NCBI GenBank assembly: GCA_023666265.1
Contig: JAMPCH010000007.1
Coordinates: 1-64,000 of the forward strand
DNA: 64,000 nt
Direction of reading: 5' to 3'
Source: Roseburia sp.
Lineage (GTDB): Bacteria > Bacillota > Clostridia > Oscillospirales > Ruminococcaceae
Part shown: positions 3,349-5,867 of the stretch, piece by piece
Numbering within the stretch: position 1 is the first letter of the stretch
How the letters are laid out: every line of letters begins with the position of its first letter
Position numbers and translations under genes: made by a program
The notes under the pieces: model-generated
Told to the model about the DNA's origin: nothing
Database searches by the model: none
The model's input: only the letters and a program-made list of their open reading frames with translations

Positions 3349-3840
3349 ATGTTGACGGCAATACAGGTTGCTCAATATTTTTTATCCAAAGATCCGAATC
3401 GAGACACCTTTAATAAACAACTCGTTACTATGAATGGCAGAACATTTTATGCGGGTAACGCACGTCTGAACAAATATCTTCACATGGCTCAAAACCTTTA
3501 TATCGCAAAAACCGGAAAACAACTTTTTTCCAACAGCTTGTTCGCTTACGATAACGGTGGGGTCGTACCGGAGGTTCAAGAAAACTATGCGGTTCTGATT
3601 GAAAAAAAAGCGACGTGTCCCGAGGTGAACGAAGAGGAACTGAGATTTTTGGACAAAGTTGATTTGATTTTTCGCCACGCCTCTCTTGACGAGATGATCG
3701 AGATGTCCCACGAAGACGAGGAATGGATTCTTCATAACAAAGAATATAAAAAAGAAGATCAGCGCATGGATTCTCTTTCCCGTCTTGAGGAATACAGATT
3801 ACAATACGCAGATATTCTTAAGGTTATGGACAGGATGTGA
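3349..3840 (+). CDS. Panacea (SocA/DUF4065-like) antitoxin-type protein
   Basis: 163 residues. The N-terminal 85 residues match the Panacea pattern: a short helix (VAQYFLS), a conserved LNKYLHMAQNLYIAKTG segment, and the GGVVPEV segment that corresponds to the family's GPVVPxVY. Panacea domains act as promiscuous neutralising domains in type II toxin-antitoxin pairs; the partner lies next door. The C-terminal part is acidic and charged. The start has a strong AAAGGAGGAGA ribosome binding site. Composition is AT-richer than the tail genes, suggesting separate acquisition. Antitoxin function is inferred from family and context. Confidence 0.7.
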   Translation: MLTAIQVAQYFLSKDPNRDTFNKQLVTMNGRTFYAGNARLNKYLHMAQNLYIAKTGKQLFSNSLFAYDNGGVVPEVQENYAVLIEKKATCPEVNEEELRFLDKVDLIFRHASLDEMIEMSHEDEEWILHNKEYKKEDQRMDSLSRLEEYRLQYADILKVMDRM

Positions 3841-3844
3841 TCGC

Positions 3845-4270
3845 ATGGTGGAAGTGGGGCAAGTGTTATCCTTGCGTATCCGACTTAACAATCAAGGCAT
3901 TATTTCAACGACCAAGCACCCATATTTGATTGTTGATGTGGCAGAGAGCGACAACATCATAGAGATCGCGCAACTGGATTCTATTGCAGGGAAGGAATAT
4001 AAAGTGGCAATGAAAAGCAACAAAGCCATTTTTTATGACAACCCAACGGAAACAGTTATAGACCGAGACAGTTATATCCAAATGGACAACCGATTCCTTA
4101 TTGAGAATTTCAAAGAACTGGAACAATATAGACGGCAACCCGATAAATTAAGCCCGCAAAAGTTATCTGATGTTCTTCAATCTTATCGTGAATACCATCA
4201 TACTCACGCGATCGACGAAGACAAAATCGTATATATGGATCAGAATGAAATTCTCGGACTCAATAACTAA
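3845..4270 (+). CDS. Putative MazF/PemK-like toxin partner of the Panacea gene
   Basis: 141 residues from the ATG at 3845, chosen because an AGGAT ribosome binding site lies eight bases upstream. The ORF is also open upstream, inside the Panacea gene. It begins with a barrel-like segment (VEVGQVLSLRIRL), then TTKHPYLIVDV, which resembles the K-x-RP-x-LVI strand of MazF/PemK toxins, and ends in a helical, Gln- and Tyr-rich tail. Only four bases separate it from the antitoxin stop, so the pair is one operon. The toxin assignment is inference; a DUF of SH3-like fold is the alternative. It is AT-rich like its partner. Confidence 0.5.
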   Translation: MVEVGQVLSLRIRLNNQGIISTTKHPYLIVDVAESDNIIEIAQLDSIAGKEYKVAMKSNKAIFYDNPTETVIDRDSYIQMDNRFLIENFKELEQYRRQPDKLSPQKLSDVLQSYREYHHTHAIDEDKIVYMDQNEILGLNN

Positions 4271-4371
4271 TTGGGATTGCGACGCACCGTTTTAGTCGAC
4301 AAAGATACCGATTATCGGTTGTGATCAAAAAAAGAGCCTTTGGTCAATTTGCACAAAAAGAATTTTTTCTA

Positions 4372-4508
4372 TTGACTTTTACGAAATTTATGATATAGTA
4401 AATAGCGTAGAGAGTACGCCGATAGACGGTAACTCTCGACGGTTTATACGCGAAAACTCGAATATAATCCGCCTACTGGTTCTAGGCGGATTACTTCTTT
4501 TTCATGTA
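4372..4508 (+). ncRNA. Small-RNA unit A: promoter, structured ~100-nt RNA, terminator
   Basis: TTGACT (4372-4377), a 16-base spacer and TATAGT (4394-4399) precede about 100 nt without a convincing ORF, closed by a hairpin (ATCCGCCTA / TAGGCGGAT) followed by a T-rich run at about 4496-4508. Near its 5' end the RNA carries AGAGTACGCCGAT, shared apart from one base with the small-RNA unit near 11,750, where it reads AGAGTACGGCGAT. A hydrophobic reading frame converges on its terminator from the other strand, the layout of type I toxin-antitoxin loci. The antitoxin role is inference. Confidence 0.5.
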
Positions 4509-4635: not shown

Positions 4636-4665
4636 TTGACAAACACATCATCGAAGGTGTATAAT
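4636..4665 (+). promoter_or_regulatory. Promoter of the PRTase-SLOG operon
   Basis: TTGACA at 4636-4641, 18-base spacer, TATAAT at 4660-4665 (an overlapping second TATAAT is at 4665-4670). It sits about 35 bases before the start of the phosphoribosyltransferase gene and gives the cargo operon its own strong housekeeping-type promoter. Confidence 0.75.
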
Positions 4666-4701
4666 ATAATATGAGAAAATGTATATGTAGGCGTGATCAA
4701 T

Positions 4702-5271
4702 ATGAAAATATCTCCTATATCAATAGTAGGTCATTGGGATGAAGGGTATCGTCTTGACGTACATACCCAATACAGTATCCCGATTGGAGAGGATCAATTC
4801 GGTCATATGCAGTTTGACACGACTCGCACCGAGTTGGGAGAATTATTATATCAAGTCAAATACCAACACGATTATCAAAAAATACAGGATATGATAGACG
4901 CAATCGGTAATTTTGTGGTTGGCACATTTCTCGGAAGGGTTGATTGCGTAATCCCTGTTCCTCCTACTCAAAAGCGCACGGTACAGCATCTGGGGATTAT
5001 TGCCGAGGAGATTGCGAAATTACTTCATTGCGGTTACGCCGGGTCGGTTTTATCGAATAAGAGCGACGGGGCGGCAAAAGATAACCAAAGTCAAAGAAAC
5101 ATTGTCCAGACTGTATTTGCTTCATCACCGCATAATATTTTACTCGTTGACGATATAATCAACACAGGAGAAACAGCGAATGCCTGTGTAGATGTGCTTA
5201 GAAAAGACCGTTACATTAATAAGGTGTATTTTTTAGCGCTTACCGCTAGAAAACGATCCGCGTGGAGGTGA
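4702..5271 (+). CDS. ComF-like phosphoribosyltransferase of a prophage two-gene system
   Basis: 189 residues from the ATG at 4702 (a GTG at 4693 is also possible). The C-terminal half is a type I phosphoribosyltransferase: CVIPVPPTQKR resembles the ComF substrate loop, and ILLVDDIINTGET is the PRPP-binding signature with the paired Asp residues. The ComF zinc finger is absent, and residues 1-70 are an unrelated beta-rich segment. The protein probably transfers or removes ribose-5-phosphate from a base or nucleotide; the substrate is unknown. It is followed after four bases by a SLOG-domain gene. PRTases and SLOG proteins recur in nucleotide-centred conflict systems, so a defence role is plausible but unproven. 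Confidence 0.7.
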   Translation: MKISPISIVGHWDEGYRLDVHTQYSIPIGEDQFGHMQFDTTRTELGELLYQVKYQHDYQKIQDMIDAIGNFVVGTFLGRVDCVIPVPPTQKRTVQHLGIIAEEIAKLLHCGYAGSVLSNKSDGAAKDNQSQRNIVQTVFASSPHNILLVDDIINTGETANACVDVLRKDRYINKVYFLALTARKRSAWR

Positions 5272-5275
5272 TCCT

Positions 5276-5803
5276 ATGAAAGTCTTTATCGGTGGCGCAA
5301 GACAGATTCATTCCTTGGATCAGGACGTCACAAAAAAGTTGAACAATATTTTGACGAAAGGGTACGATATTCTTGTTGGGGACGCAAACGGAATTGATGC
5401 AAGCGTTCAAAAGTATTATTATGACAACGGGTATCGAAATGTCACGATTTACGCATCCAACGGCAAAGCTCGAAACAATGTAGGAAATTGGGAGATACAA
5501 CCCGTAAAAGTCGACAGCGGAGTTACGGGATTTGACTTTTACGCCGCAAAAGACCTTAAAATGGCGCAAGATTCCGATTGCGGTTTTATGATCTGGAACG
5601 GTAAAAGCCGTGGTACTTGGAACAACGTTTTAAATTTGTGCGACCGCGAAAAGCTCGTTGTGCTATATGTTTCTTTTGAAAAACGATTTTATAAAATCTT
5701 CAATACGCAACAAGCTATCGAGATAAAGAAGCAGATCGAATATTCGATAACATCGCCGCGAACGTATGACGGATCCGATCACGCACAACTACACTTGTTT
5801 TAG
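5276..5803 (+). CDS. SLOG-superfamily (YspA/cpYpsA-like) nucleotide-binding protein
   Basis: 175 residues with a near-perfect GGAGGTGATCC ribosome binding site that overlaps the stop of the previous gene. Residues 1-130 fit a Rossmann-like SLOG fold: an N-terminal strand and glycine turn (MKVFIGGARQI), a central ILVGDANGIDASVQKYYY motif in the place of the LOG/DprA nucleotide-binding G-D-x-x-G-x-D loop, and a later strand ending in CGFMIWNGKSRGTWNN. SLOG proteins bind or cleave nucleotides or NAD-like ligands in several immunity systems. Paired with the PRTase, it may sense or process a ribosylated nucleotide. A terminator follows, closing the operon. Confidence 0.7.
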   Translation: MKVFIGGARQIHSLDQDVTKKLNNILTKGYDILVGDANGIDASVQKYYYDNGYRNVTIYASNGKARNNVGNWEIQPVKVDSGVTGFDFYAAKDLKMAQDSDCGFMIWNGKSRGTWNNVLNLCDREKLVVLYVSFEKRFYKIFNTQQAIEIKKQIEYSITSPRTYDGSDHAQLHLF

Positions 5804-5834
5804 ATTTGTCGAAACTTAGAACAACATTACCATA

Positions 5835-5867
5835 AAAAGAATCCTTTGTAAAAGGGTTCTTTTTTAT
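5835..5867 (+). terminator. Rho-independent terminator after the PRTase-SLOG operon
   Basis: AAGAATCCTTT and AAAGGGTTCTT form a hairpin with a four-base loop, followed by a run of T. It separates the cargo operon from the lysis module. Confidence 0.8.

What the first reader, a model, noticed from the sequence alone, without database searches (positions are those of the whole stretch)
4636..5867. PRTase-SLOG two-gene operon in prophage cargo: candidate undescribed conflict system
Seen: a consensus promoter, a ComF-like phosphoribosyltransferase without its zinc finger, a SLOG (YspA-like) protein after four bases, and a terminator, all in AT-rich DNA between tail and lysis genes. Known: SLOG domains and PRTases occur in nucleotide-centred immunity and signalling networks. 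Inference: one protein makes or consumes a ribosylated nucleotide that the other senses or cleaves, possibly blocking competing phages. I know of no named system with exactly these two proteins.
Basis: partly seen in the sequence, partly recalled or inferred. Interest (0 to 1): 0.75.

Follow-up and report, generated by a model that had tools for sequence, protein, structure and literature searches.

The report
Likely two-gene toxin–antitoxin module in prophage
A bacterial virus lying dormant in a Clostridia-type genome carries a small self-contained gene pair, an enzyme that probably poisons cells plus a partner that probably holds it in check, and the same pair turns up on plasmids, prophages and defence islands across many bacterial phyla, which points to an overlooked relative of the ShosTA and PsyrTA phage-defence toxin–antitoxin systems.

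Summary
Window 4702-5271 encodes a ComF-like PRTase without the zinc finger; 5276-5803, four bases on, a SLOG protein; a perfect sigma-70-type promoter and a terminator flank them in AT-rich prophage cargo between tail and lysis genes. The pair is no accident: of the 80 best SLOG relatives in GTDB genomes, 56 have an intact PRTase directly upstream, 18 a partial or broken one, 6 none, always in the same order; 14 of 15 PRTases found independently in viral contigs have the SLOG directly downstream. It recurs in E. coli P2-like prophages, conjugative plasmids and RM/CBASS/Wadjet islands. Signs of toxin (PRTase) and antitoxin (SLOG): SLOG fusions to an 'addiction module antidote' HTH, broken PRTases beside intact SLOGs, a far stronger SLOG ribosome site, and analogy with RqlHI/PsyrTA and ShosTA. 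It is not a sequence member of either: no RecQ domain, no full-length DprA, curated models hit at generic level, PRTases in their own clade. Best reading: a new, widespread variant of the PRTase/SLOG toxin–antitoxin kind, probably abortive-infection or addiction cargo. Toxicity, neutralisation, target and defence are inferred.

The parts
4636..4665 (+). sigma-70-type promoter, TTGACA-18-TATAAT, of the pair
   Evidence: 12/12 consensus; 0.00045 expected per shuffled spacer
4702..5271 (+). PRTase gene (189 aa from ATG 4702; 192 aa from GTG 4693): family-specific N-terminal G-x-W-x-x-G domain (1-45) plus ComF-like PRTase core with PRPP loop ILLVDDIINTG (D150-D151); predicted toxin
   Evidence: PF00156/TIGR00201 hits; PsyrT/ShosT models 6e-8/2e-6; 20 of 21 family columns conserved at >=90% are kept; ATG start by alignment
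5263..5273 (+). near-perfect Shine-Dalgarno GGAGGTGATC of the SLOG gene, overlapping the PRTase stop codon
   Evidence: duplex -19.2 kcal/mol against -10.9 for the PRTase start
5276..5803 (+). SLOG gene (175 aa), predicted antitoxin/regulator
   Evidence: 28 of 29 family columns conserved at >=90% are kept, incl. GD-x2-G-x-D-x3-Q, RNN-x-G-x-W, KD, D-x-G-x3-W-x3-S-x-GT; weak DprA-like hits
5834..5864 (+). intrinsic terminator of the pair
   Evidence: hairpin of 14 pairs plus T run
4465..4493 (+). terminator upstream that separates the pair from the preceding genes
   Evidence: fold z = -3.2 for 4404-4502

Best explanation
A prophage-borne toxin-antitoxin module of the PRTase/SLOG kind. The PRTase, when free, uses PRPP to phosphoribosylate (or otherwise consume PRPP on) an acceptor that is still unknown and thereby stops growth; the SLOG protein, translated from a stronger ribosome site in the same transcript, holds it inactive, most likely by direct binding to the PRTase as RqlI binds RqlH. 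When a competing phage disturbs the cell (nucleotide pools, DNA damage, ssDNA) or the operon is lost, the SLOG brake fails and the PRTase aborts infection or kills the cured cell. Shown here: operon anatomy, conserved pairing and order, mobility, antitoxin-type HTH fusions, intact active-site residues, bias towards broken PRTases. Inferred: toxicity, neutralisation, trigger, acceptor, benefit to the prophage.
For: Pairing: 56/80 intact plus 18/80 partial or broken PRTases directly upstream, order always PRTase then SLOG, 29 with the exact 4-bp overlap; 14/15 PRTases found from the other side have the SLOG directly downstream. Antitoxin signs: SLOG fused to a TIGR02684/PF21716 addiction-antidote HTH above the curated cut-off or followed by a separate HTH gene; 17/80 SLOGs carry a C-terminal extension of >=80 aa. 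Toxin signs: 17 partial or broken PRTases beside intact SLOGs; two plasmids that lack the SLOG have a broken PRTase. Expression: SLOG ribosome site -19.2 against -10.9 kcal/mol. Catalytic residues kept. Mobile/defence context: P2-like prophage slots, plasmids, CBASS, RM, Wadjet, ABC-3C, SIR2. [quoted passage not shown] DprA+PRTase in a P2 hotspot protects against T7 and lambda.
Against: No toxicity, binding or plaque data exist for this pair. One genome (G332, 96% complete) has an intact PRTase of the family and no SLOG, though its contig ends near the gene. In E. coli L220 a first PRTase is intact with a degraded SLOG, but a second complete pair follows. The broken-PRTase bias comes from a SLOG-first sample ranked by SLOG score, and frameshifts in draft genomes may be sequencing errors. 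Several SLOGs occur without any PRTase (6/80; rhizobial and cyanobacterial plasmids). SLOG similarity to PsyrA/DprA is weak (hhalign probability 11-24%). In the RqlH work the isolated PRTase domain was not toxic on its own.
Confidence: 0.62

Rival explanations
1. Nucleotide signalling pair: the PRTase makes a ribosylated nucleotide signal on infection and the SLOG senses it or cleaves it.
For: SLOG domains bind or cleave nucleotides in Thoeris and LOG proteins (literature); the SLOG loops are conserved; pairing is near obligate.
Against: The SLOG carries no effector domain in most members; fusions are to antitoxin HTH, not to effectors; 17 PRTases are partial or broken while the SLOG stays intact, odd for a signal receiver left without its signal.
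Confidence: 0.13
2. Writer and eraser: the PRTase adds phosphoribosyl to a base in DNA, RNA or a nucleotide, and the SLOG, acting like a nucleosidase, removes it, so that the SLOG is an enzymatic antitoxin (the model proposed for RqlHI).
For: RqlHI model in PMC4670107; links to RM genes, including a SLOG fused to an N6/N4 DNA methyltransferase (L101) and a SLOG between type III mod and res (L067).
Against: No enzymatic activity known for this SLOG; RqlI binds the PRTase domain directly, which is enough for inhibition.
Confidence: 0.17
3. DNA-handling pair derived from competence proteins (ComF and DprA) that serves phage or plasmid DNA entry or recombination, not conflict.
For: ComF and DprA both handle ssDNA in transformation (established knowledge); the PRTase core is closest to ComF by profile (E 1e-34).
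Against: Antidote-HTH fusions, defence-island and prophage-cargo placement, loss of the ComF zinc finger, own tree clade apart from ComF; patchy presence (5 of 391 class genomes by SLOG).
Confidence: 0.05

Closest known systems
ShosTA (PRTase ShosT + DprA-like ShosA)
   Same: Two genes, free-standing PRTase plus SLOG-superfamily protein, toxin-antitoxin and phage defence, carried in P2-like prophage hotspots (PMC9122126)
   Different: ShosA is a DprA-like protein (model 303 positions, rings on housekeeping DprA); here the SLOG is 175 aa and reaches ShosA only at E 0.0026 in 2 of 12 members; ShosT model best E 1.5e-9, in the window over the PRTase core only
PsyrTA / RqlHI (RecQ-PRTase + DprA-like)
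   Same: PRTase gene first, SLOG gene directly after; PRTase is the toxic part; also found inside RM and BREX operons
   Different: No RecQ helicase; SLOG without the N-terminal and C-terminal parts of PsyrA; PRTase in a separate clade (97/87)
ComF / ComFC competence PRTase
   Same: PRTase core (hhalign E 1e-34)
   Different: No zinc finger (0 against 3-11 Cys); a family-specific N-terminal G-x-W...YALD-x-H stretch instead; not housekeeping
Type III-A retron PRTase effectors
   Same: PRTase as defence effector; weak model hits (1e-4 to 1e-3)
   Different: No reverse transcriptase gene beside it in the window

Membership tests
ShosTA | Toxin matches the ShosT model at member level over its length | tested here: not met
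   Window 25.9 bits, E 2e-6, residues 72-185 only; best of 7 members 1.5e-9. An authentic ShosT was not available for a direct tree (rang nowhere)
ShosTA | Partner is a DprA-like ShosA of about 300 aa | tested here: not met
   Window SLOG 175 aa, no ShosA hit; best member 0.0026 while ordinary DprA reach 1e-58 to 1e-75
ShosTA | PRTase toxic, DprA neutralises, protects from phage | not testable with these tools
   Needs expression and plaque assays
PsyrTA / RqlHI | PRTase domain fused to a RecQ helicase | tested here: not met
   PRTase is free-standing, 189 aa; none of the neighbouring ORFs scanned between 67 and 7410 is a helicase
PsyrTA / RqlHI | PRTase groups with PsyrT PRTases | tested here: not met
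   Family forms one side of a branch, 97/87, 98% of bootstraps, apart from 3 PsyrT and 27 ComF
PsyrTA / RqlHI | Same gene order, SLOG-type partner directly downstream | tested here: met
ComF | N-terminal cysteine-rich zinc finger | tested here: not met
   0 Cys in first 70 aa
ComF | Score above the TIGR00201 cut-off | tested here: not met
   24.3 bits against 233.55
Protein toxin-antitoxin module (kind) | Conserved adjacent pair, fixed order, coupled genes | tested here: met
   56 intact + 18 partial or broken of 80; 29 with 4-bp overlap
Protein toxin-antitoxin module (kind) | Antitoxin with DNA-binding antidote domain in part of the family | tested here: met
   TIGR02684 83.4 bits over cut-off 53.7 (L044); PF21716 1.8e-18 (L095). 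The window member itself lacks it
Protein toxin-antitoxin module (kind) | Toxicity and neutralisation | not testable with these tools
   Bench work needed
YspA/YAcAr SLOG (PF10686) | Pfam match above cut-off | tested here: not met
   Window no hit; best member 0.054
SLOG/DprA Rossmann superfamily | SLOG fold | tested here: inconclusive

The most novel reading that the evidence does not exclude
The family is a free-standing guard module, not in the curated defence catalogue searched (PADLOC 2023), in which the SLOG ties a PRTase toxin to the state of cellular DNA metabolism or of a neighbouring restriction-modification system (SLOG fused to an N6/N4 DNA methyltransferase behind its PRTase in L101; SLOG inside a type III mod-res operon in L067), and sets the PRTase free when a phage disturbs it.
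Probability: 0.2. Interest if true: 0.75.

Novelty: new variant of a known kind. Interest (0 to 1): 0.52.

Why it matters
What the PRTase toxins of ShosTA, PsyrTA and type III retrons do chemically is, as far as I could find, still open. Here is a compact (about 1.1 kb), widespread, two-protein version without helicase, reverse transcriptase or full DprA, present in a Clostridia prophage, Listeria and enterobacterial plasmids and E. coli P2-like prophages. It would let the PRTase reaction and the SLOG brake be studied in the smallest system, and its genes are at present annotated only as 'ComF family protein', 'amidophosphoribosyltransferase' or 'hypothetical protein'.

Tried and rejected
Single-protein scans of viral contigs with each window protein found nothing; the SLOG had no match in INPHARED phages, and the three phage hits of the PRTase were ordinary ComF genes on scaffolds with bacterial genes. 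The ShosA model proved useless as a genome probe because it rings on nearly every DprA. The ShosT model at 1e-25 rang in no genome or control, so ShosT could not enter the tree. PRTase profile search of 382 genomes mostly returned ComF, but with a clean gap: three family members at 1e-60 to 1e-68, ComF from 1e-25 down and mostly without the N-terminal 40-odd positions. Rfam gave nothing credible around the pair. Sequence search of the PDB gave no SLOG relative and only generic PRTases. Literature: no paper found that names this pair; the DefensePredictor paper (PMC13092281) lists a validated E. coli system with a PRTase in a figure legend, whose identity could not be read; Brenes and Laub 2025 and Payne 2024 are not held. 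Rejected: housekeeping ComF or competence role, chance adjacency, retron effector.

Full report
What is there. A 12/12 sigma-70-type promoter (4636-4665) is followed by a PRTase gene, a SLOG gene four bases later and a hairpin terminator at 5834-5864. A perfect promoter is expected 0.00045 times in shuffles of the spacer. The start ATG 4702 fits the family alignment better than GTG 4693. The pair has 41.8% GC, against 47.6% in the tail genes and 56.7% in the rest of the window. It lies between a phage tail gene and a holin-like gene plus amidase endolysin. A terminator at 4465-4493 separates it from the genes before. So it looks like an autonomous cargo unit. The contig starts at window position 1, so the left part of the prophage is not visible.

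The PRTase. Pfam and NCBIfam see a generic PRTase core (PF00156 2e-5, ComF 2.6e-5). PADLOC sees PsyrT (6e-8) and ShosT (2e-6). Homologues share an N-terminal stretch of about 45 residues (G-x-W-x-x-G-Y-A-L-D-x-H ... G-H) that ComF lacks, and they lack the cysteines of the ComF zinc finger: 0-2 Cys in the first 70 residues, 3-11 in 27 Clostridia ComF proteins. In a search of 382 genomes the family stands clear of ComF: three hits at 1e-60 to 1e-68, then nothing until 1e-25. In a maximum-likelihood tree of the core the family is one side of a branch against 27 ComF and 3 PsyrT domains (97/87; 98% of bootstrap trees). Profile comparison puts ComF nearer (E 1e-34) than PsyrT (1e-15). The window copy keeps 20 of 21 columns conserved at 90% or more, with the PRPP-loop Asp pair D150-D151.

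The SLOG protein. Relatives are numerous: 207 confirmed loci in the GTDB contig scan, of which 80 are held, from Bacillota, Pseudomonadota, Chloroflexota, Planctomycetota, Acidobacteria, Nitrospirales and others by record titles. Invariant motifs are GD-x2-G-x-D-x3-Q, RNN-x-G-x-W, KD and D-x-G-x3-W-x3-S-x-G; the window keeps 28 of 29 columns conserved at 90% or more. Some members touch DprA (PF02481, best 1.4e-4) and fewer YAcAr (0.054); profile comparison with DprA is suggestive only.

Pairing. Of the 80 best SLOG loci, 56 have an intact PRTase directly upstream, 18 a partial or broken one (frameshift, truncation, in one case a contig edge), and 6 none; the order is always PRTase then SLOG, with an exact 4-bp overlap in 29. 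From the other side, 14 of 15 PRTase-first hits in viral contigs have the SLOG directly downstream; the fifteenth is a weak, possibly unrelated hit. The plasmid tables agree, from Listeria innocua pLI100 to Agrobacterium, Xanthomonas and Klebsiella plasmids.

Why toxin and antitoxin. (1) In alphaproteobacteria the SLOG can be fused to an HTH domain that NCBI calls addiction module antidote protein (TIGR02684, 83.4 bits over a cut-off of 53.7; also PF21716 in L095), or be followed by a separate HTH gene; 17 of 80 SLOGs have a C-terminal extension of 80 aa or more. (2) Seventeen intact SLOGs sit behind a partial or broken PRTase, whereas two plasmids without SLOG have a broken PRTase (Xanthomonas perforans split in two frames, Citrobacter braakii cut short next to an IS1). 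This is what a poison and its antidote leave behind, with the caveat that the main sample was ranked by SLOG score. (3) In the window the SLOG ribosome site is near perfect (-19.2 kcal/mol) and the PRTase site weaker (-10.9). [quoted passage not shown] a DprA plus PRTase pair in a P2-like prophage hotspot protects against T7 and lambda (PMC9122126). Exceptions: an intact lone PRTase in G332, and a tandem in E. coli L220 where one PRTase has a degraded SLOG but a complete second pair follows.

Context. In E. coli, 85 of 5,426 genomes give a DNA match, most of them short. Complete pairs sit in P2-like prophages, between the tail gene D region and ogr (L218) and between the portal gene and the replication genes (L219). 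Elsewhere they lie beside type II RM (L043), CBASS and VapC (L044), an ABC-three component system on a conjugative element (L220), and SIR2 (L274). Neighbour genes of 50 loci include phage integrases, serine recombinases, type III Res, type I specificity subunits, AbiEi and Wadjet JetA, but many ordinary genes too: the unit travels alone and has no fixed third gene. SLOGs with little or no PRTase are often in RM or Wadjet settings: between type III mod and res (L067), beside HsdM (L055), beside JetA (L074); in L101 the SLOG is fused to an N6/N4 DNA methyltransferase behind its PRTase. PsyrTA itself lies inside a type I RM operon and a BREX operon in two of the examples read, a parallel worth following. 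In the Clostridia class the SLOG is in 5 of 391 genomes, the window's own included, and in none of 8 other genomes of the genus examined, as expected of mobile cargo. A prophage with a related tail gene (35% identity) carries a Panacea gene pair at that place and no PRTase-SLOG.

Mechanism proposed. The PRTase uses PRPP through its intact Asp-Asp loop on an unknown acceptor; the SLOG, made in excess, holds it. A competing phage or loss of the prophage removes the brake. Shown: anatomy, pairing, motifs, antidote fusions. Inferred: everything about activity. Confidence 0.62 that the PRTase is a toxin neutralised by the SLOG; whether the benefit is phage exclusion or addiction is not decided by the data.

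Membership and novelty. It works like ShosTA and PsyrTA but fails their sequence tests: no RecQ, no full DprA, model scores at the level of generic similarity, separate clade. I could not put an authentic ShosT in the tree. No curated model in PADLOC 2023, Pfam, PHROGs or NCBIfam names the pair, and no held paper was found that does. The DefensePredictor paper lists a validated E. coli system with a PRTase whose identity I could not read, so part of this family may already have been tested. Verdict: a new variant of a known kind.

Noticed in passing
window 3349-4270: A second toxin-antitoxin-like pair directly upstream in the same slot: SocA/Panacea-domain gene (PF13274, 4.6e-10) followed by a partner of phrog_13386; a related prophage (L254, reverse strand) has a Panacea gene plus another small partner at the same place.
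   Followed up: partly
window 4366-4502: Possible small RNA gene: promoter-like TTGACT-16-TATAGT, about 95 nt that fold unusually well (z -3.2) and end in a strong terminator, between the Panacea pair and the PRTase gene; single copy in the genome, no Rfam or phage match.
   Followed up: partly
L101 5411-10855: PRTase followed by a SLOG fused in frame to an N6/N4 DNA methyltransferase (784 aa) and then a helicase-like gene, as in a type III RM operon.
   Followed up: partly
L067 4073-9642: A SLOG of this family with no PRTase lies between type III mod and res genes.
   Followed up: partly
L074 5412-11286: A SLOG lies next to a Wadjet (JetA) operon; only a 17-residue PRTase trace upstream.
   Followed up: no
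L269 2354-5871; L270 2405-5934: PsyrTA (RecQ-PRTase plus DprA) embedded inside a type I RM operon and inside a BREX operon.
   Followed up: no
L042 5426-6540: In Neisseria gonorrhoeae (a chromosome-sized record filed as a plasmid) the pair sits directly before carB.
   Followed up: no
L220 4016-6603: E. coli conjugative element with two PRTases in tandem, a degraded SLOG between them and an intact SLOG with HTH-type extension at the end.
   Followed up: partly
L224 1495-2085 (L255): An intact PRTase of the family in a genome without any SLOG relative, beside a GNAT-like gene; the contig ends close by.
   Followed up: partly
L045, L046, L047: SLOG relatives without PRTase on rhizobial and Planktothrix plasmids, the rhizobial ones near DUF2493 genes, so the SLOG also has another life.
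   Followed up: no
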